Below, piece by piece: positions 16,613 to 23,058 of a DNA stretch of 25,564 nt. The stretch lies in IMG/VR virus record IMGVR_UViG_3300031885_001008, positions 1 to 25,564 of that record; one strand, given 5' to 3'. Source of the stretch: a virus. The stretch's first letter is position 1, and every line of letters begins with the position of its first letter. The notes beneath the pieces are model-generated. The model was not told the DNA's origin. It saw only the letters and a list, made by a program, of their open reading frames with translations, and searched no databases. The position numbers and the translations under genes are program-made.

Positions 16613-16806
16613 CAGATGAATTGATTACTGGGTTTACCAAAGTTGGGTACACGGATGATGGAATGGTTTTTTTCCTACTTGTCACGTCTCTTGAGGGGAA
16701 GCCTATCAAGACGATCAATCAGTGGGAACCCAAGAGGGCTCTTGAGATTTCTGAGAGCATTAAACAGGCCGCGACCCATGCTCAGTTAAAGAGGCAAGGG
16801 AAATGA
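16609..16806 (+). CDS. Small phage protein, unknown function
   Basis: This 65-residue protein has a short beta-rich N-terminal half (GFTKVGYTDDGMVFFLLVTSLEG) and a C-terminal helix (EPKRALEISESIKQAATHAQ). The ATG overlaps the preceding stop (ATGA), and the stop overlaps the gp4-like gene (ATGA). No recognisable family. Coupling to the structural operon suggests a virion or assembly helper. Confidence 0.68.
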   Translation: MTDELITGFTKVGYTDDGMVFFLLVTSLEGKPIKTINQWEPKRALEISESIKQAATHAQLKRQGK

Positions 16807-17492
16807 GCGAAACCGCACAGACGTTGATCAAAGCCGCTCTGAGATCGATTGGAGTGATCGCTCCAGGTGAGACGCCGACGGACGATGAGATCCAGGATGG
16901 CCTTGAAGCGTTGAAATTCATGTTCCGTCACTGGTCAGCCAACGATATCAGAATTTACTCTGTGACGGTTGAGAATTTCCCGCTTACCGGTGCAACATCC
17001 TACACGATCGGCTCAAGTGGTACGTTCAACACTGTAAGGCCTGCATCGATCCGTGGGGCCTACGTCAGGGATGCCTACAATTTCGACAATCCCCTGAAGA
17101 TCATCGATGAGGCCAAATACAGGGAACTGCATCTCAAGACCATCGTGGCGACCGCCGGATATCTCTGGTACAACCCGACTTACCCACTGGGAACGATCTA
17201 TCTCTACCCACTCGATGGATCGACGATTTATCTACACTCCTTAAAACCGTTGAGCGATCCTTCGGCAATCACAACAGACGTTGCCTTTCCTCCTGAATAC
17301 GACGAGGCGATCAAGTTCAACCTTGCCGTGAGGTTAGCCCCTGAGTACGGGAAAGAGCCCTTGCAGATGTGCATGGCTCTCGCGGCAAGCGCCATGAAAG
17401 ATATTGAAACGAGAAACTTTGCTTCTCAAATCAATGCGGTGAAGCCTGAAGTGATTAAAATCGCACGGAGGTATTCAATCGATGAAGGCTAA
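16803..17492 (+). CDS. Head-completion/tail accessory factor, P22 gp4-like
   Basis: The 229-residue protein begins with the hallmark of the P22 gp4 family (TLIKAALRSIGVIAPGE, then EIQDGLEALKFMFRHWS). Later parts (PPEYDEAIKFNLAVRLAPEYG, then a terminal helix) also match longer members. In P22, gp4 binds beneath the portal after packaging, stabilises the DNA-filled head and forms the seat for gp10. P22 gp4 has 166 residues, so this copy is longer, as in many relatives from other hosts. ATGA coupling joins it to the preceding gene. The next start lies 11 bases inside its end. Confidence 0.88.
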   Translation: MSETAQTLIKAALRSIGVIAPGETPTDDEIQDGLEALKFMFRHWSANDIRIYSVTVENFPLTGATSYTIGSSGTFNTVRPASIRGAYVRDAYNFDNPLKIIDEAKYRELHLKTIVATAGYLWYNPTYPLGTIYLYPLDGSTIYLHSLKPLSDPSAITTDVAFPPEYDEAIKFNLAVRLAPEYGKEPLQMCMALAASAMKDIETRNFASQINAVKPEVIKIARRYSIDEG

Positions 17493-17817
17493 AATGTTTT
17501 TGGTCTTGGCTTTGGTGTTGATGCCATGTCTAGCATTTGGAGCTCCTTTCGTCATCTGTGATTACGTGCCGACGACGCAGACTCAGCCGACCTATTATCA
17601 TTTGGTCAAGGACGGGGGAGTGACTGAAGATTCAACGGCTCAAGTCCAGGCAGATAATTCCGTAAGGCTTCATTACGACCTGGCAATCGTTACGACTGGG
17701 GCTCATAGTTGGACCGTCTCAGCATGTAACGAATGGGGGTGCAGTAGCACCGTCCCTTTCGCGTTTTCAAAAGCTGTTCCGTCCGGACCTGCAAATTTAA
17801 GATTGTCCAATCAGTAA
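17482..17817 (+). CDS. Signal-peptide protein with Fn3-like beta domain
   Basis: The 111-residue product begins with a short basic N-terminus and a hydrophobic core (MFLVLALVLMPCLAFGAPF). This is a likely signal peptide cut near residue 20-22, with no clear lipobox. The rest is a fibronectin-type-III-like beta sandwich ending TGAHSWTVSACNEWGCSST, where two Cys could form a disulfide. GGAGG precedes the ATG by about 10 bases. A signal peptide in the middle of tail genes suggests export to the periplasm or cell surface, or an inherited leader. The frame ends at 17817, but a -1 shift at A AAT TTA (17793-17799) would add 62 residues and end exactly at the next gene's start. Confidence 0.75.
   Translation: MKAKMFLVLALVLMPCLAFGAPFVICDYVPTTQTQPTYYHLVKDGGVTEDSTAQVQADNSVRLHYDLAIVTTGAHSWTVSACNEWGCSSTVPFAFSKAVPSGPANLRLSNQ
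17793..17799 (+). promoter_or_regulatory. Candidate -1 slippery heptamer A AAT TTA
   Basis: The seven bases fit X XXY YYZ and lie in the exact register of the Fn3-like gene (codons AAT TTA). Five bases downstream GTCCA (17805-17809) can pair with TGGAC (17823-17827). The zero frame stops at 17815-17817. The -1 frame stays open to 17987. The same heptamer serves Rous sarcoma virus; efficiency in bacteria is uncertain. Confidence 0.35.
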
Positions 17818-17987
17818 ATGGGTGGACCTGGCAGGCGGTCCTTGTGTTGACAAAACCCAAGGACGGAACGTGGGATGAAGCGGGAGTCAAACTCTACGTT
17901 GAAATGTTAGGAACAGCGGCTAACCAAAACTGGGAACAGGAAATGAATGAGTTGTTTAACTCGATGATTCTGAAATTGGAGCCATAA
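17799..17987 (+). CDS. Open frame without usual start: frameshift extension or separate small gene
   Basis: The stretch encodes KIVQSVNGWTWQAVLVL and continues to MNELFNSMILKLEP, 62 residues after the putative shift. Codon use and the Trp-rich start look genuinely coding. Its TAA overlaps the next gene's ATG (TAATG), like other real junctions here. No ATG, GTG or TTG lies near the apparent beginning. GTG at 17844 would remove the GWTWQ part, and ATT at 17802 lacks a ribosome site. Either -1 frameshifting from the Fn3-like gene, a rare start codon, or a sequence indel explains it. Function unknown. Confidence 0.5.
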   Translation, partial: KIVQSVNGWTWQAVLVLTKPKDGTWDEAGVKLYVEMLGTAANQNWEQEMNELFNSMILKLEP

Positions 17988-18682
17988 TGGCAATCGTCAT
18001 CACCGCAGACTATACGACCAAGGCTTGGGGTAACACAACCAACACCACGATGAACCGTCCGGCCAACGTGGTGGATGGTGATTTTTTACTTGCTTTCTTG
18101 ATATTGTATTCTTCTGCCGCAGTAACCCCACCCACAGGATGGACGTTAATCGTTGCGGTCGCAAATACGAGTGGCTGTTATACGCACCTTTACTATAAAA
18201 GAGCGGCGAGCGAGGGAGCAAGTTGGGTATGGACCCATGCCAATACAAGTACCTCTGGATTTGTCCAACGATTGACTGGTGTTGTTGCCTCCGGTGATCC
18301 TGAAGACTGCACACGAAGCACAGCAACGGCCGAGGGTACTTCTATTTCATGTGCGTCCATTACCACTGCTACGGCTGGGGCTTGCCTTTGTCAGGCATTG
18401 GGTGCAACGGATACCACCGGACTTTGGAGTGGTGAAACATTAACAGAGCGGATAGATGTTGCAACGGTTGCCCTTGCTTCCGATCTTCAAGCCTCCGCAG
18501 GGGCAAGCGGCGCTAAGGCTGCAACTCACGCTGATGGGTATTCTCTCGCAGCGGTTTTGATAGCATTGAGGCCAGCGGCGGGCGGTGGCCCTTACACCGG
18601 AAGCAAAGCAGGAGTTTTGACAGAAGCCGGTGCCTATTCGAGAAAACTAGAAGCCGGAAGAACAAAAGGTGGAATTTTATGA
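17987..18682 (+). CDS. Beta-rich virion-type protein with one C-terminal 20-residue repeat
   Basis: The 231-residue protein is rich in Thr, Ala and Ser with alternating beta strands. Its pattern (VDGDFLLAFLILYSS, then PPTGWTLIVAVANTS, then YYKRAASEGASWVW) is common in uncharacterised phage structural proteins with a jelly-roll-like, possibly sugar-binding fold. The last 30 residues change character: GSKAGVLTEAGAYSRKLEAG matches the repeat unit of the protein encoded at 20094. It starts in a TAATG overlap. The role is probably a tail or decoration component; no enzyme motif is visible. Confidence 0.72.
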   Translation: MAIVITADYTTKAWGNTTNTTMNRPANVVDGDFLLAFLILYSSAAVTPPTGWTLIVAVANTSGCYTHLYYKRAASEGASWVWTHANTSTSGFVQRLTGVVASGDPEDCTRSTATAEGTSISCASITTATAGACLCQALGATDTTGLWSGETLTERIDVATVALASDLQASAGASGAKAATHADGYSLAAVLIALRPAAGGGPYTGSKAGVLTEAGAYSRKLEAGRTKGGIL

Positions 18683-18879
18683 TCAGGAAGAGAATCTATC
18701 ACTTTTTCAAGGGAAGGCTGAACAAGCCTAAATACAAAGTCACAAAGGAGGGTCAAAAATGTTACTCAGTCACTTTATCCCGTACACTGAATCTTGGAGA
18801 CTTGCAAAAATTGCAAAGCAAGTCAGGTCGGGGATCGTTCCTAAAGGGGTTGACAAAGAAACTATTTGGAAAGCCCTGA
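18679..18879 (+). CDS. Possible short basic ORF, doubtful
   Basis: The frame starts in an ATGA overlap and gives a 66-residue basic protein (MIRKRIYHFFKGRLNKPKYK at the start). Only the first 27 or so residues are outside the next gene, which has a far better ribosome site. The rest lies in a second frame of that gene. The ATGA junction argues for translation; the 121-base overlap argues that the original stop was lost or the frame is chance. Confidence 0.3.
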   Translation: MIRKRIYHFFKGRLNKPKYKVTKEGQKCYSVTLSRTLNLGDLQKLQSKSGRGSFLKGLTKKLFGKP

Positions 18880-19361
18880 AACAGACGAGACCAAGAAACG
18901 TCACGGAGATGTTCGGCTTTCTCTTCGCTAAAGTTCAAAGGGCGGACGGAACGACAAAGGACTATGGCCTTGTCTCTGTGAAGGAAGTCACGGCGGTTTT
19001 TACCAAGCGGCTTGTTGATGCCATGGTCACATCCGGAGATGTGCTTGACAACTTCAATCAGCACAAGATGGGGTCAGGATCGACGGCGGAGACAGATACC
19101 GAAACCGCTCTTGTCACAGCAAGGGCTGGGGCGCAGGGTGCCACCGGAAATGCCGCGGCTACCCATGGGGCCACTTCGAACATCTACAGGACCGTCGGGA
19201 CGTTGACCGCTGATGCGGCCTACGGTTGCAGGGAGCATGGAGTTTTCAACGCCTCCACGGGTGGGATCCTGCTCGACCGTTCAGTCGTTACGGCTATCGA
19301 TCTTAATACGGACGATATTGTCACCTGGACCTATGAACTCACGGCCAACGCGGGAGGATAG
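18759..19361 (+). CDS. Conserved phage structural-type protein
   Basis: AAAGGAGGG lies 7 to 8 bases before the ATG at 18759, fixing the start of this 200-residue protein. The C-terminal two thirds show a recognisable phage pattern: GSGSTAETDTETALVTA, NIYRTVGTLTADAAYGCREHG, and GGILLDRSVVTAIDLNTDD followed by a closing beta strand TWTYELTANAGG. Proteins with this RTVGT...EHG...LLDRS...NAGG signature occur in many tailed phages near tail or head-decoration genes, but no exact function is established to my knowledge. Likely a virion protein. It is followed after 5 bases by a Maf/GT42-like gene whose GGAGGA ribosome site lies in this gene's last codons. Confidence 0.8.
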   Translation: MLLSHFIPYTESWRLAKIAKQVRSGIVPKGVDKETIWKALKQTRPRNVTEMFGFLFAKVQRADGTTKDYGLVSVKEVTAVFTKRLVDAMVTSGDVLDNFNQHKMGSGSTAETDTETALVTARAGAQGATGNAAATHGATSNIYRTVGTLTADAAYGCREHGVFNASTGGILLDRSVVTAIDLNTDDIVTWTYELTANAGG

Positions 19362-19366
19362 TTTTA

Positions 19367-20116
19367 TTGAAAACCCTCATGCAGTGGGAGTGGCAGAAGC
19401 TCTATATTCCTCCGTCTGTGGCGAAGAAACGTAATAACATCGTCAAGGTGTTAAACGTTATACCTTCGGAACCGGAGAAGTTTCCACCTATCGAATCTCT
19501 GAGGGAACATGACACCGTATTCATCACAGGTGACGGAAAGTGTCTTGCTCAGGATGTTGAAGAATTTACTTCCTGGGGGATAGGTCACGACATCTACGCA
19601 GTCAACCGATCCCTTATTTTCCATGAAAGGCAGGTGCTTCACTGGGCGGCGGTTGATGTTGAAGAGGCGACATGGTTCACTCAGTATGTAAATGGAAACG
19701 TTGAACCGAGAAGAAGGATCATCCGTCATTCCATCGGAGGGGAAACTCACTTCGGGAATACAGACGGAGTCGGACTCTATGACATCTATTGGACGATGGA
19801 CTACCAGTGGGAGAATGAGTATCAGCGTCGTGTCTTCGTCGGGAATACGGGCTATTTCTCCGTTCTAACGGCCCTGAAGATGGGATATTCGAAGGTGGTG
19901 CTAGGTGGTATGCCCTTGAACCAAGATCCTCATTGGTACGATCCTGACGATGCTGACGGGCCAAACTGGACCGGGTTGACGTACTGCCAGTGGATGGATT
20001 TCAAAATGAAGCATTCTGGGGCGGACAGGGTACGGAGCCTTCAGGGCTACTCCTCCTTCATTTTAGGGCAGGCAACGAAGGATTGGGTATTAAATGGCGC
20101 TATTAGGAACAACTAG
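19367..20116 (+). CDS. Rossmann-fold Maf(DUF115)/GT42-like protein, copy 3
   Basis: This 249-residue third paralogue starts at TTG 19367 about 8 bases after GGAGGA. It has a longer N-terminal extension (about 45 residues) than copy 1. The shared signatures are VFITGDGKCLAQDVEEF (51-67), HDIYAVNRS (74-82), and VGNTGYFSVLTALKMGYSKV followed by VLGGMPL (158-184). It agrees more closely with copy 1 than copy 2 (TGDG, SWGI, VLHWA, IRH). The T-G-x-x-x-x-x-x-A-x-x-x-G-Y pattern resembles the Campylobacter sialyltransferase CstII. It sits between tail-region genes, 6 kb from the other two, so the copies are dispersed and not a fresh tandem duplicate. CMP-sugar transfer is inferred, not shown. Confidence 0.6.
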   Translation: MKTLMQWEWQKLYIPPSVAKKRNNIVKVLNVIPSEPEKFPPIESLREHDTVFITGDGKCLAQDVEEFTSWGIGHDIYAVNRSLIFHERQVLHWAAVDVEEATWFTQYVNGNVEPRRRIIRHSIGGETHFGNTDGVGLYDIYWTMDYQWENEYQRRVFVGNTGYFSVLTALKMGYSKVVLGGMPLNQDPHWYDPDDADGPNWTGLTYCQWMDFKMKHSGADRVRSLQGYSSFILGQATKDWVLNGAIRNN

Positions 20117-21152
20117 ACGTTATTCGATTCTTGCAAGACTAAAAGACGGAGTCCTTTCGTCTGCGGGTGCACTCACCAGAAAGATCCAAGGATTAAGGAC
20201 CTACACTGGAGGTCTGTCTTTCTCTGGTGTGTACTCTTATTTAAGAAGTCTCCCTGGGGGGACGAGGGCCGGAGTTCTTTTGCTTGCCGGATCTCTTCTA
20301 AGATCGATTCAGGATCTTAGGACTTATTTGGGAACTCTTTCTTTAACCGGAGCAACAACTAGACTTCTTAATCTCTCCAGGGTCTATACCGGAGTCCTCT
20401 CCTTAACCGGTGCCCTCTCGAAGGTCTTTAATCTACCCAAACTCTACGCTGGGGTTTTATCTTTCGCAGGAATCGTAACTGGTGTAGTCTCAGGCGGCCA
20501 GGAATTCTACACATATACGGCAACAGGAATAAAGAATTTTGCCGGGGCGATCACTCGGAATTTCAATGGATCAAGAACTTTTTCAGGTGTTATTTCATGG
20601 TCTGGTACTGTTCTAAGATCATTAATTTCGGCAAGGACTTATTCGGGGATGCTCTCCTTTTCGGGTGTGTTTCTCAGATCCCTAATTTCCGCAAGAACCT
20701 ATTCCGGGATCTTGTCTTTTGCCGGGAGTGTCTATTATTCGGTTCAAGCAGCAGGGATCGAAGGCGGTATCCTTGCGATAGCGGCCCAGCTTACCCGATG
20801 GCTCCAACTGAATAGGCTTCGTTCGGGTGTCTTAACCTGTGTCGGCGCATTAACGAGATATTCTGTCCTTTCCAGATTAAGAGCAGGGGTTATTTCATCC
20901 AGCGGTGCTCTTTTAAGGCGCATAAATGCGGCAAGGCTTTATTCATCTGTCCTAAATTTCGCCGGTGCGGTTACGAGTTATGTTGGTAATTTTGGCACTG
21001 GCTCAGGGATTCTATCGATAAACGGGGCCATGACTAGGCAAGCTCATTATTTTAGGACAATCACATCCGGATTAATCATGGTCGGCCCATCCGCCGGAGG
21101 GTTGGCTAGAAGGGGTCTTTTGAGATTAGGTTTCGCTCCCAACATGAGGTAG
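20094..21152 (+). CDS. Protein made almost wholly of 20-residue repeats
   Basis: The 352-residue protein consists of about 15-16 copies of a unit close to R-x-Y-S-G-V-L-S-F-A-G-A-L-T-R. The conserved second Gly of each unit falls at residues 25, 45, 66, 86, 106, 126, 151, 171, 191, 211, (Ala 231), 251, 271, 291, 311 and 331, a strict spacing of 20 with one one-residue and one five-residue insertion. The units alternate hydrophobic and small residues and carry a basic position, suiting a beta solenoid or amphipathic hairpin array. There is no signal peptide or Cys pair. It overlaps copy 3 of the Maf-like genes by 23 bases. Function unknown; a fibrous virion or membrane-contact protein is possible. 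Confidence 0.75.
   Translation: MALLGTTRRYSILARLKDGVLSSAGALTRKIQGLRTYTGGLSFSGVYSYLRSLPGGTRAGVLLLAGSLLRSIQDLRTYLGTLSLTGATTRLLNLSRVYTGVLSLTGALSKVFNLPKLYAGVLSFAGIVTGVVSGGQEFYTYTATGIKNFAGAITRNFNGSRTFSGVISWSGTVLRSLISARTYSGMLSFSGVFLRSLISARTYSGILSFAGSVYYSVQAAGIEGGILAIAAQLTRWLQLNRLRSGVLTCVGALTRYSVLSRLRAGVISSSGALLRRINAARLYSSVLNFAGAVTSYVGNFGTGSGILSINGAMTRQAHYFRTITSGLIMVGPSAGGLARRGLLRLGFAPNMR
20145..21104 (+). repeat. Sixty-base protein-coding repeats (20 codons per unit)
   Basis: About 16 degenerate units occur in tandem. The best-conserved neighbours are 20613-20672 and 20673-20732, sharing twelve residues in a row (LRSLISARTYSG) while 7 of those 12 codons differ silently. The repeat is therefore conserved as protein, not as DNA. 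Confidence 0.75.
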
Positions 21153-21155
21153 AAA

Positions 21156-21485
21156 ATGACAACTGAAAATGAACTGAGAGGCGGTCTTGAACTTACGGAG
21201 ATAGCAGCAGATTGGGACTACTCGGCTTCAAGGCCCCCTAATTGGCCTAATCTCCCAAGAATCTCCAGCATCCACTTTGATCCGGCAGCGGCCAACGACA
21301 AACTTGTCGTAAAGGACGGAACGGAAGATGGACCCCGGAGATGTGTTCTCGGCCCCTGTGACAATGCAAACGATCAGCGAATCAAGTATTTTCACGGGGC
21401 AAGATTGTCTCCGTTTATCGATTTTTCGGAGTGTGTGCTAACGGCCGGACATAGAGTGACCATCGAACTATGGAGCGAAAGATAG
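21156..21485 (+). CDS. Phage protein of unknown function
   Basis: This 109-residue protein starts 3 bases after the repeat protein's stop, with GAGGT before the ATG. It contains PPNWPNLPRISSIHFDPAAA and a beta-rich end (GHRVTIELWSER), with DKLVVKDGTEDGPRRC in the middle. The pattern resembles small beta-sandwich phage proteins placed in tail operons, but no family can be named. Two Cys (RRCVLGPC) are close together. Likely a virion component because of its neighbours. Confidence 0.68.
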   Translation: MTTENELRGGLELTEIAADWDYSASRPPNWPNLPRISSIHFDPAAANDKLVVKDGTEDGPRRCVLGPCDNANDQRIKYFHGARLSPFIDFSECVLTAGHRVTIELWSER

Positions 21486-21493
21486 GAGGTGAT
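21484..21493 (+). promoter_or_regulatory. Full-length Shine-Dalgarno before a 13-residue ORF
   Basis: AGGAGGTGAT is complementary to ten bases of the usual 16S rRNA 3' end and is the strongest ribosome site in the window. The core GGAGG ends 7 bases before the ATG at 21497. Confidence 0.8.
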
Positions 21494-21496
21494 CCC

Positions 21497-21538
21497 ATGC
21501 CCTGCAAGGGAAAGAAAAAGAAAGTGAGACGTAGGTAA
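21497..21538 (+). CDS. 13-residue basic mini-ORF coupled to the gp10-like gene
   Basis: The peptide reads MPCKGKKKKVRRR. It follows a perfect Shine-Dalgarno sequence and ends in TAATG, where the last base of its stop is the first base of the gp10-like start. It has ten basic positions or neighbours and one Cys. It probably serves to deliver ribosomes to the next gene, or is a tiny basic virion peptide; both are inference. The strong site and exact coupling make chance unlikely. Confidence 0.55.
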   Translation: MPCKGKKKKVRRR

Positions 21539-23058
21539 TGGAGATCCCGTTTGTCGGCGGATCCTATAAGGGGCCGTCGAGCAATATCAACGCTCAGATC
21601 TGTCAAAACCTGTTCCCGATCGCAGACCAGCAGGGTGGCAAACCCTTGAGCCTTATCGGGACGCCCGGACTCCGTTTCTTTTGTTCCTATGTCGAACCTG
21701 AGCATACGGTAAAGGGGAAACTCACATTCGCAGGTTCTGTCGTTGGAAATTATAAACAAGGAGTAAGTCACAGCACAGACCTTCCACCTTCCGCCGATCT
21801 TCCTGTCTCCCTAGAGGTAAGGGGCGTCCACGTCATGGGGTCCTATCTCTACGCCGTGATCGGTCCATCTATTTATCGAGTGGATTCATCCGGCGGTATG
21901 ACAATTATGAGAGGGAGTCTCCTAACTTCGACTGGCCTCGTCTGGATGGAGAACAACGGCACTCAGTTGATGATCGTCGATGGGACCTATGGGTATATCT
22001 TGTCAGGGACGACCCTTTCTCAGATCACGGATTCTGATTTCCCTGTTCCTTTCTCTCTTGCCTACCAGGACGGATATTTCATCGTCTCCGAAAAAGATAC
22101 GGGAAGATTTTACATCTCAGAATCCTATGACGGGACTTTGTGGGATGCCTTAGATTATGCGACGGCTGAAAGCTATCCTGACAATCTTCAGACCATTATT
22201 TCAGCCCATCGGGAACTGTGGCTCCTAGGGAAGGAATCTTATGAGGTCTGGTATAACTCGGGGGACGCGACTTTCCCATTTGAGAGAGTCCCCGGAGCAA
22301 CAAATCGCCTTGGTTGCATCGCTCCTCATTCAGCGGCTGAGTACCGTGGGACTGTCGTATGGCTCGATAACTTCAGGGGAGTCCAGGCTTCGAACGGATA
22401 CCAGGCTCAAAAGATCTCGACGGACCATATCGACTACCAGATTTCGCAACTTACGACGGTCACTGATGCAATCGGATTTATCTACTCACAGGAAGGGCAT
22501 ACTTTCTATGTGCTGACTTTTCCCTCGGAGAATAAGACCTTTGCTTATGACTTCATGACAAGCATTTGGCACACGAGGGCTTCCGGACCATTTGATCTGA
22601 GACACCCTGCGAACTGCTACGCTTACTTCGAGGGAATGCACATTGTCGGGGATTATGGGTCTGGTAAACTCTATAAGTACGATCTCTCGAAATATGACGA
22701 CGATGGGGTTGAACTTCGAAGGGTAAGGGCGGCTCAGGCTGTCCGCTCGGACAGGAAAGTTGCCTTTCACTCATCCCTTGAGATCGAGTTTGAGGCAGGC
22801 ATGGGGCTTGCCGTTGATCACCCTGATATTGACAGTGGAGATGATCCCCAGGCGATGCTTCAATGGTCTGACGATGGAGGTCATACCTGGAGCAATGAGC
22901 ACTGGACGGATATCGGAGTCATTGGGAAGTACAAGACAAGGGCAATATGGAGAAGGTTAGGATCATCGAGAGACAGGATTTACAAGGTGACGATCTCCGA
23001 TCCGGTCAAGGTGGTCATTCTCGGGGCCTATCTTGAGGCACAGGCGGCAGCAGCATGA
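21538..23058 (+). CDS. Packaged DNA stabilisation/tail hub protein, P22 gp10-like
   Basis: The 506-residue protein opens with IPFVGGSYKGPSSNINAQIC and LIGTPGLRFF, the clear start of the gp10 family (Phage_stabilise). Later matches include LYAVIGPSIYRVDSSG, LQTIISAHRELWLLG, ESYEVWYNSGD and FERVPGATNRLGC, with a beta-propeller-like body. In P22 (472 residues) gp10 follows gp4 under the portal, plugs the DNA channel and holds tailspikes and needle. An insertion at about residues 52-93 (VKGKLTFAGSVVGNYKQG within it) is absent from the usual sequence I recall and resembles the 20-residue repeat of the upstream protein. Translation probably couples to the 13-residue ORF; there is no ribosome site of its own. 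Confidence 0.9.
   Translation: MEIPFVGGSYKGPSSNINAQICQNLFPIADQQGGKPLSLIGTPGLRFFCSYVEPEHTVKGKLTFAGSVVGNYKQGVSHSTDLPPSADLPVSLEVRGVHVMGSYLYAVIGPSIYRVDSSGGMTIMRGSLLTSTGLVWMENNGTQLMIVDGTYGYILSGTTLSQITDSDFPVPFSLAYQDGYFIVSEKDTGRFYISESYDGTLWDALDYATAESYPDNLQTIISAHRELWLLGKESYEVWYNSGDATFPFERVPGATNRLGCIAPHSAAEYRGTVVWLDNFRGVQASNGYQAQKISTDHIDYQISQLTTVTDAIGFIYSQEGHTFYVLTFPSENKTFAYDFMTSIWHTRASGPFDLRHPANCYAYFEGMHIVGDYGSGKLYKYDLSKYDDDGVELRRVRAAQAVRSDRKVAFHSSLEIEFEAGMGLAVDHPDIDSGDDPQAMLQWSDDGGHTWSNEHWTDIGVIGKYKTRAIWRRLGSSRDRIYKVTISDPVKVVILGAYLEAQAAAA

What the first reader, a model, noticed from the sequence alone, without database searches (positions are those of the whole stretch)
21484..21538. 13-residue basic peptide with the best ribosome site in the window
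A ten-base match to the anti-Shine-Dalgarno and a TAATG link to the gp10-like gene make this tiny frame likely translated. gp10 has no ribosome site of its own, so the peptide may set gp10 level, or itself be a small DNA-binding virion peptide (MPCKGKKKKVRRR).
Basis: partly seen in the sequence, partly recalled or inferred. Interest (0 to 1): 0.5.

Follow-up and report, generated by a model that had tools for sequence, protein, structure and literature searches.

The report
Widespread tiny cysteine-lysine phage peptide
A 13-residue peptide gene that looked like a one-off next to a phage head gene belongs to a large, apparently undescribed family of tiny, strongly positively charged peptides with a conserved cysteine, carried by many different bacterial viruses, so it probably works as a peptide in its own right rather than as a switch for the neighbouring gene.

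Summary
MPCKGKKKKVRRR is at 21497-21538, behind the longest Shine-Dalgarno match before any start codon in the window (AGGAGGTGATCC), with a TAATG overlap onto a P22 gp10-like gene.

The peptide is not a local curiosity. IMG/VR scans gave 113 members (94 distinct peptides, 8-29 aa) in diverse tailed phages: M-[P/A/G]-C-[G/K] followed by Lys, Gly, Arg and Pro, with 4 acidic residues among 1216. Cys-3 marks the family: with codon 3 left free, 22 of 22 Cys starts are frames of at most 40 aa, against 12 of 87 others (p=9e-15). An SD-free scan still finds SDs of 5 nt or more before 58 of 72 basic frames, against 2 of 23 others.

Control of gp10 is not the shared function. Only 26 of 113 members overlap or abut an ATG, 15 precede an intrinsic terminator within 80 nt (control 16 of 914, p=1e-7), and 68 of 75 gp10 relatives start gp10 at another long frame's stop.

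A head-module association failed a placement test (9 records observed, 9.5 expected). Best reading: a trans-acting thiol-polycation binding nucleic acid, probably made with late genes; target (phage DNA or ribosome) unresolved. Its N-terminus resembles ribosomal protein bS22. I found no description in open papers.

The parts
21484..21495 (+). Shine-Dalgarno AGGAGGTGATCC of the tiny frame; overlaps the stop of the upstream 109-aa frame
   Evidence: sequence; longest SD match in the window
21497..21538 (+). tiny gene, MPCKGKKKKVRRR and stop
   Evidence: sequence; member of the M[PAG]C-basic family
21536..21540 (+). TAATG stop/start overlap with the gp10-like gene
   Evidence: sequence
21538..23058 (+). 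gp10-like head closure protein (506 aa), no ribosome site of its own
   Evidence: PHROG 578, E 9e-114; 52 phage records matched by tblastn
21156..21485 (+). 109-aa frame of unknown function just upstream; its stop overlaps the SD
   Evidence: ORF list; no PHROG match
16803..17492 (+). gp4-like head-tail adaptor; in the two closest loci this gene stands directly before the tiny frame, here about 4 kb of other frames lie between
   Evidence: PHROG 12985 / 637; 32% identity to the gene before the tiny frame in L087
8600..10150 (+). terminase large subunit (start of the late block, for orientation)
   Evidence: PHROG 38, 1e-54

Best explanation
The tiny frame encodes a member of an unannotated family of 8-29-residue phage peptides, M-[P/A/G/S]-C-[G/K]-(K/G/R/P)n. 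Shown here by computation: the family exists, keeps its amino-acid make-up while codons and neighbours change, has SD sites well above background, occurs once in nearly all records tested, and is not tied to a downstream gene. Inferred: the peptide is made in quantity with the late genes, loses its initiator Met (residue 2 is usually Pro, Ala or Gly), and acts in trans as a short polycation with a free thiol next to the N-terminus that binds nucleic acid. I think phage DNA at packaging or in the head somewhat more likely than the ribosome, but the evidence does not decide. In this window translation of the tiny frame probably also feeds ribosomes to gp10, as a local side effect of where the gene landed.
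For: Independent recovery: L003, found by gp10 homology alone, carries MPCGGKKGKGKGKGGKGK with TAAGGAGGTG at the same place. A pattern scan with SD + MPC gave 28 loci; 25 of them encode basic frames of 10-26 aa (the others 40, 100 and 157 aa). Cys-3 control: with codon 3 free, Cys 22 of 22 at most 40 aa, all other residues 12 of 87 (p=9e-15). Residue 2 control: with codon 2 free (51 frames), P 22 of 22, A 14 of 15, G 8 of 8, S 1 of 1 at most 45 aa, Y 0 of 2, T 0 of 1. SD-free scan: of 95 located frames, 72 basic tiny ones have an SD of 5 nt or more in 58, the 23 others in 2; background 8.8% of 29,465 ATGs in the same loci. Composition: 1216 residues after residue 3, K 661, G 317, R 98, P 52, D 3, E 1; from residue 9 on, where no pattern acts, D+E 1 of 651. 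Purine-only codons AAR 685 against GAR 3, so charge is selected, not a polypurine tract. Codon positions in disjoint similar pairs: 30 of 45 differences at position 3 (p=5e-6); for codons 9 onward 14 of 22 (p=0.003) or 23 of 37 (p=3e-4). Exactly one place in 19 of 20 records, reversed-pattern control 0. Trans: terminator within 80 nt after 15 of 113 (13 distinct peptides) against 16 of 914 control frames. Same strand as terminase or portal in 32 of 34 records.
Against: No expression, proteomic or binding data. No cultured phage with the peptide was found: 15 regions of cultured or named phages, 208 kb, 0 members, though five basic Cys-3 frames outside the family's make-up do occur there, probably by chance, one starting MPC (MPCADDDRMHRGRSHRRR). 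Placement next to terminase or portal is not above chance (9 of 34 records within 3.5 kb, 9.5 expected), so a capsid role has no clear positional support. With the looser pattern only 43 of 50 records show exactly one place (4 show two, 3 none). In one search one frame each with Cys or Leu at residue 2 is also tiny, so the small-residue rule is not strict; and the merged list of 113 was filtered to P, A, G, S or T at residue 2, so that column is partly imposed. The scans fixed parts of residues 2-8, and every pattern scan of the viral collection but that required AGGAGG. The shortest members (8 aa) would be weak DNA condensers. The conserved Cys is not explained by a plain polycation role.
Confidence: 0.45

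Rival explanations
1. Ribosome-directed peptide. It resembles the first eight residues of small-subunit protein bS22 (MPCG[KR]K[KR]K) and may occupy or block the same 16S rRNA pocket late in infection, as phage-encoded bS21 is proposed to act on host ribosomes.
For: Of 117 bacterial-genome hits of a similar pattern (a capped list), 95 are basic frames of 28-33 aa; one of them searched against the PDB matches bS22 in solved ribosomes: Flavobacterium 7jil, Borrelia 8fmw, and 9i5v (the organisms of these entries are recalled). The 8fmw chain begins MPCGRKRK. Passages read in PMC10618245 place bS22 in a pocket of 16S h2, h27, h44, h45. Abstract of PMC9723584: phage bS21 is linked to late replication.
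Against: The similarity covers eight residues that my pattern partly imposed; the phage peptides lack the HKRKKRLRKNRHKKK body; bS22 tolerates Ser or Asn at residue 3 whereas phage tiny frames hold to Cys; a 20-aa phage member has no PDB hit.
Confidence: 0.2
2. Translation-coupling cassette: the SD and overlap load ribosomes for gp10 and the peptide itself is of no account.
For: TAATG, gp10 without SD; the RNA fold masks the gp10 start together with the tiny SD; 26 of 113 members overlap or abut an ATG; in this lineage the tiny frame stays with gp10 although the gene upstream differs.
Against: Identical peptides occur with different codons and flanks; neighbours differ; 15 of 113 sit within 80 nt before a terminator; 68 of 75 gp10 relatives start gp10 at the stop of a long frame without any tiny frame; the fold is not seen in L087 and L097.
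Confidence: 0.12
3. Cationic membrane-active or lysis-related late peptide.
For: Some members lie between tail fibre and endolysin genes (L092: tail fibre upstream, endolysin downstream; L100: tail fibre upstream; L093 has like frame sizes), others about half a record's length downstream of terminase.
Against: Residues after the third are almost all polar or Gly: no hydrophobic face; others lie beside portal, scaffold or terminase genes.
Confidence: 0.08
4. Chance frame behind a purine-rich stretch.
For: An SD match of 10 or more before an ATG arises in 12 of 200 random windows.
Against: The family, Cys-3 control, SD-free scan, near-absence of Glu and Asp, and codon-position results.
Confidence: 0.03

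Closest known systems
Ribosomal protein bS22 (AURKAIP1/COX24 type; mS38 in mitochondria)
   Same: Tiny, more than half Lys/Arg, unannotated in Borrelia until its structure (passage), start MP[C/S/N]G[KR]K[KR][KR]
   Different: 28-33 aa with a conserved HKRKKR..NRHKK body; cellular; residue 3 variable; phage peptides end after 8-29 residues of K/G/R/P
Phage-encoded ribosomal protein bS21
   Same: Small protein carried by phages and tied to late replication (abstract of PMC9723584)
   Different: A recognisable homologue of a host protein; for the present family no host homologue over its length was found
Protamine-like virion peptides such as adenovirus mu/pX, and T4 internal peptides (recalled)
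   Same: Very short, highly charged, late
   Different: mu is cut from a precursor and is Arg-rich, T4 internal peptides are cleavage products and acidic (recalled); here a free-standing 8-29-aa gene with a Cys at residue 3
P22 gene 10 (head completion / Hc3) neighbourhood
   Same: The downstream gene is a clear gp10 relative
   Different: No tiny frame before gp10 in 74 of 75 relatives examined, nor the M[PA]C pattern anywhere in the 20 records of such relatives searched whole (20 of the 80 loci; several are fragments)

Membership tests
M[P/A/G]C-basic tiny phage peptides (family proposed here) | ATG, small residue 2, Cys 3, then almost only K/G/R/P/S/T, 8-29 aa | tested here: met
   MPCKGKKKKVRRR; similar in make-up MPCKGKKKSKKKR (L321) and MPCKGKKKRRKRRKK (L324)
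M[P/A/G]C-basic tiny phage peptides (family proposed here) | own SD of at least 5 nt (100 of the 113 members; 58 of 72 in the SD-free scan) | tested here: met
   12-nt SD here
M[P/A/G]C-basic tiny phage peptides (family proposed here) | one copy per genome | tested here: inconclusive
   19 of 20 records have exactly one place, 43 of 50 with a looser pattern; many may be fragments, as is the window's 25.6-kb record
Ribosomal protein bS22 | HKRKKR..NRHKK helical body, about 30 aa | tested here: not met
   The window peptide ends at 13 residues; the one phage member searched (20 aa) has no PDB hit, a cellular member does
Ribosomal protein bS22 | binding to the 16S h2/h27/h44/h45 pocket | not testable with these tools
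   needs binding or structure work
Leader peptide / translation coupler for gp10 | tiny frame kept before gp10 in relatives | tested here: not met
   1 of 75 relatives; seen in the window, L003/L087 and L097 only
Head-module (capsid) peptide | location near terminase and portal above chance | tested here: inconclusive
   Placement: 9 of 34 within 3.5 kb, 9.5 expected, but head-adjacent members without a terminase or portal match (L083, L442) drop out of that test; neighbour tallies show more portals than the background (phrog_156 7 against 2, phrog_1216 5 against at most 1) but like numbers of terminase phrog_2 (6 against 5) and adaptor phrog_332 (5 against 4)
Head-module (capsid) peptide | presence in virions | not testable with these tools
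   needs proteomics suited to tiny Lys-rich peptides

The most novel reading that the evidence does not exclude
Tailed phages of many kinds carry a common, overlooked class of 8-29-residue thiol-polycation genes whose product is made in bulk late in infection and binds packaged phage DNA (a free-standing phage counterpart of protamine or adenovirus mu), the conserved Cys-Gly end anchoring or cross-linking it.
Probability: 0.22. Interest if true: 0.88.

Novelty: categorically new. Interest (0 to 1): 0.72.

Why it matters
If right, a conserved gene family among the shortest has gone unseen because gene finders skip frames of this size and trypsin would cut the product to nothing (both recalled). 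Patterns alone found 113 members, nearly all from one viral collection, in phages with different kinds of head genes. That makes a direct test possible: a ten-residue gene whose role can be probed with synthetic peptide. The novelty grade refers to the family: no named family or paper was found for it here, but the novelty tests were limited (Pfam on two padded peptides; the PDB on one; strings and topics in open papers; the peptides themselves were not run against PHROGs), and the function may prove to be of a known kind.

Tried and rejected
Head-module peptide: I first read the neighbours (portal, terminase, scaffold, head protease, gp10) as a packaging association. The placement test does not support it (9 of 34 within 3.5 kb, 9.5 expected). 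The PHROG tallies are mixed: terminase phrog_2 6 among neighbours against 5 among genes more than 2.5 kb away, phrog_979 5 against 3, head-tail adaptor phrog_332 5 against 4, but portal phrog_156 7 against 2 and phrog_1216 5 against at most 1 (not among the 25 families shown). A weak portal link is therefore not excluded, and the placement test leaves out head-adjacent members whose record had no terminase or portal match (for example L083 and L442).

Polypurine tract instead of a protein: rejected, GAR codons 3 against AAR 685. bS22 truncated in phages: none of the 34 short frames listed has the bS22 body. Conserved regulatory hairpin at the junction: z -2.07 in the window but not seen in L087 or L097. 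Cultured phages with the peptide: not found in stretches of pelagiphages HTVC010P, Baldr, Skadi-2 or of two Manatee Spring records, Brevibacillus phages Jimmer1 and Abouo, phiOH2, A118, EW, phiPaco, ppBeUSDA76-2, Mvi-Yong1342-1, MIF8, SABI; only MW202557, ppBeUSDA76-2 and Mvi-Yong1342-1 were read whole. DNA and protein searches meant to lead to such phages. Papers: string searches for MPCGGKK, MPCGKK, MPCKGK, MPCGGKKG, MPCKKK, MPCKGG and MACGGKK, MACGKK, MPCGGK, MGCGKK, MPCGSKK, MACGGKR and topic searches showed nothing on such a family in their listings and abstract beginnings. One paper holds MPCKKK; only its listing was seen. The paper on small phage genes sought by title was not among the ten listed.

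Rows dropped before counts: 119 unique frames became 113 after removing six judged chance or doubtful (L025, L117, L359, L384, L084 and a second frame in L360). L084 still counts among the 22 Cys frames. L001 and L003 were left out as copies of the window and L087; loci from bacterial genomes (L197-L313) were left out of the phage family counts. One search reported 98 stretches, 95 were located. Neighbour tally used 148 of 151 representatives of 150-760 aa; background 148 of 320 clusters. Placement test used 33 of 50 records (those with a terminase or portal match and a readable peptide place) plus the window, treating records as circular. The gp10 start test used 75 of the 80 loci, itself the best 80 of at least 600 matches. 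The codon-position test used the 119-frame set; one search repeats it on the 113. The list is capped (117 stretches, more exist).

Full report
Observation. The frame 21497-21538 (MPCKGKKKKVRRR) follows AGGAGGTGATCC at 21484-21495 with a 7-nt gap after AGGAGG and ends TAATG on the gp10-like gene 21538-23058. That gene matches PHROG 578, head closure Hc3, at 9e-114. The site is the longest SD match before any start codon in the window, but an SD of that length appears in about 6% of random windows (12 of 200), so the window alone cannot settle it. The record is a 25.6-kb virus record, probably a fragment. Its other genes show a P22-like late block: terminase 8600, portal 10135, scaffold 13812, coat 14632, gp4-like 16803, gp10-like 21538, tail fibre 23287, DNA ejection 23775.

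Relatives of gp10. A scan with gp10 gave at least 600 matches, of which the best 80 loci were kept. Of 75 examined, 68 begin gp10 at the stop of a long upstream frame, 52 of those with no SD, and 1 (L003) has a tiny frame. That one reads TAAGGAGGTG..MPCGGKKGKGKGKGGKGK, TAA, ATG of gp10. A second such locus is L097. gp10 of L097 and L087 (the same contig as L003) is 46% and 45% identical to the window's. There the gp4-like gene stands directly before the tiny frame. In the window the gp4-like gene lies about 4 kb upstream with other frames between, yet the tiny frame still overlaps gp10. Twenty records of other gp10 relatives, searched whole, have no M[PA]C pattern, 0 of 20 (several are fragments). 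So gp10 does not need the peptide for coupling.

The family. Scanning IMG/VR for SD + ATG CCN TGY + purine-rich codons gave 28 loci, 25 of them with basic frames of 10-26 aa. Leaving codon 3 free gave 109 frames: Cys at residue 3 in 22, all 22 at most 40 aa; other residues in 87, 12 at most 40 aa (Fisher 9e-15). Leaving codon 2 free gave 51 frames and showed that residue 2 is mostly one that allows Met removal: P 22 of 22, A 14 of 15, G 8 of 8, S 1 of 1 at most 45 aa; but one frame with Cys and one with Leu there is tiny too, and Y 0 of 2, T 0 of 1 are not. A looser Arg/Lys pattern gave 42 loci. An SD-free pattern for MPCG.KK with TAA nearby gave 98 loci, 95 located; this pattern favours short frames and fixes Gly-4 and Lys-6/7 by design. 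Of these, 72 are basic tiny frames, and 58 of the 72 have an SD of at least 5 nt; of the other 23, 2 do; background is 8.8% of 29,465 ATGs in the same loci. Merged, pruned and de-duplicated: 113 members, 94 distinct peptides, 8-29 aa. Leaving out the 47 members known only from the SD-free scan, residue 4 is G in 48 and K in 14 of 66.

Signs that the protein is what counts. After residue 3 there are 1216 residues: K 661, G 317, R 98, P 52, S 35, T 23, D 3, E 1; from residue 9 on, beyond every pattern, 651 residues hold 411 K or R and 1 acidic residue. A composition filter (at least a third K or R) helped define members. In the slightly larger set of 119, AAR codons number 685 and GAR codons 3. 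A purine tract would not spare Glu. Identical peptides occur with different codons and dissimilar flanks (for example L090 and L106: 7 of 16 codons differ, upstream identity 28%). In disjoint pairs of similar frames 30 of 45 differences fall at codon position 3 (p 5e-6); for codons 9 onward 14 of 22 (p 0.003) or, with a looser pairing, 23 of 37 (p 3e-4). Records hold exactly one place in 19 of 20 cases; the twentieth, L083, has a variant that the pattern misses but that finds. With that looser pattern 43 of 50 records show one place, 4 two and 3 none.

Cis or trans. Of 113, 19 have TAATG-type overlaps and 7 a directly following ATG; 15 (13 distinct peptides) are followed within 80 nt by a hairpin and T-run, against 16 of 914 control frames (odds ratio 8.6, p 1e-7). 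The 201 large neighbours fall into 159 BLAST clusters. Genes next door or nearby include terminase, portal, scaffold, head protease, gp10, tail fibre, endolysin, RtcB, Sak4 and DNA ligase, and many are unknown. A gene that stays itself while its neighbours change, and that not rarely ends a transcription unit, most likely acts through its product. In 32 of 34 records it lies on the strand of terminase or portal, as late genes do, though many phages have most genes on one strand.

A lead that did not hold. The neighbours suggested a head-packaging role. Placing the peptide relative to terminase and portal in 34 records gave 9 within 3.5 kb with 9.5 expected. Neighbour and background PHROG tallies were alike for terminase and adaptor families, but portals were commoner among neighbours (phrog_156 7 against 2; phrog_1216 5 against at most 1). 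I therefore do not claim a head-module link, and do not exclude a weak one.

What it resembles. One such sequence matches ribosomal protein bS22 in PDB 7jil, 8fmw and 9i5v at 6e-7 to 3.5e-10. Passages of PMC10618245 describe bS22 as 61% Lys/Arg and lodged among 16S h2, h27, h44 and h45. The phage peptides share only its first eight residues or so, and hold to Cys where bS22 may have Ser or Asn, so membership fails while a like target stays possible. Four tiny frames of phage type also turned up in bacterial bins (L216, L254, L277, L279); L254 has a portal gene just upstream, so it is phage DNA.

Conclusion. Supported by computation: a real, widespread tiny peptide family, probably acting in trans, of which the window frame is a member. 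Inferred: bulk late synthesis, Met removal, nucleic-acid binding. Open: DNA or ribosome, and why Cys-3 is kept. No cultured phage with a member was found in the 15 regions read.

Noticed in passing
L120, L129, L140 (MPASGRRKKPMSGRRKPRKPSGRRK type); L164, L176 (MPGKKKKKVKKPYGY); L154, L147, L150: Other tiny basic phage frames behind strong SDs without Cys-3; some may be separate small families.
   Followed up: no
among L197-L313, bacterial genome contigs: bS22-like frames starting MPCG (95 of 117 hits are basic and 28-33 aa) in Omnitrophota, WOR-3, Ignavibacteriota, Cloacimonadota, Bacteroidota and others; Pfam and NCBIfam gave no match for the two searched.
   Followed up: partly
L236, L253, L296: Three contigs share a 22-aa frame MPCG[KR][RK][RK]P[TM]AISW.SEGF behind AGGAGGG (L236 and L253 titled Nitrospira); not of the basic family.
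   Followed up: no
window 17482-21485: About 4 kb between gp4-like and gp10 genes; of six frames there run against PHROGs, 17987 (hydrolase family) and 18759 (unknown family 5417) matched, 18679, 19367, 20094 and 21156 did not (17482-17817 was not searched). Looks like an insertion relative to L087.
   Followed up: partly
L092, L325, L335, L371 (just after the tiny frame): The tiny frame is followed within about a dozen bases by a strong intrinsic-terminator-like hairpin and T-run, so it can be the last gene of its unit.
   Followed up: yes
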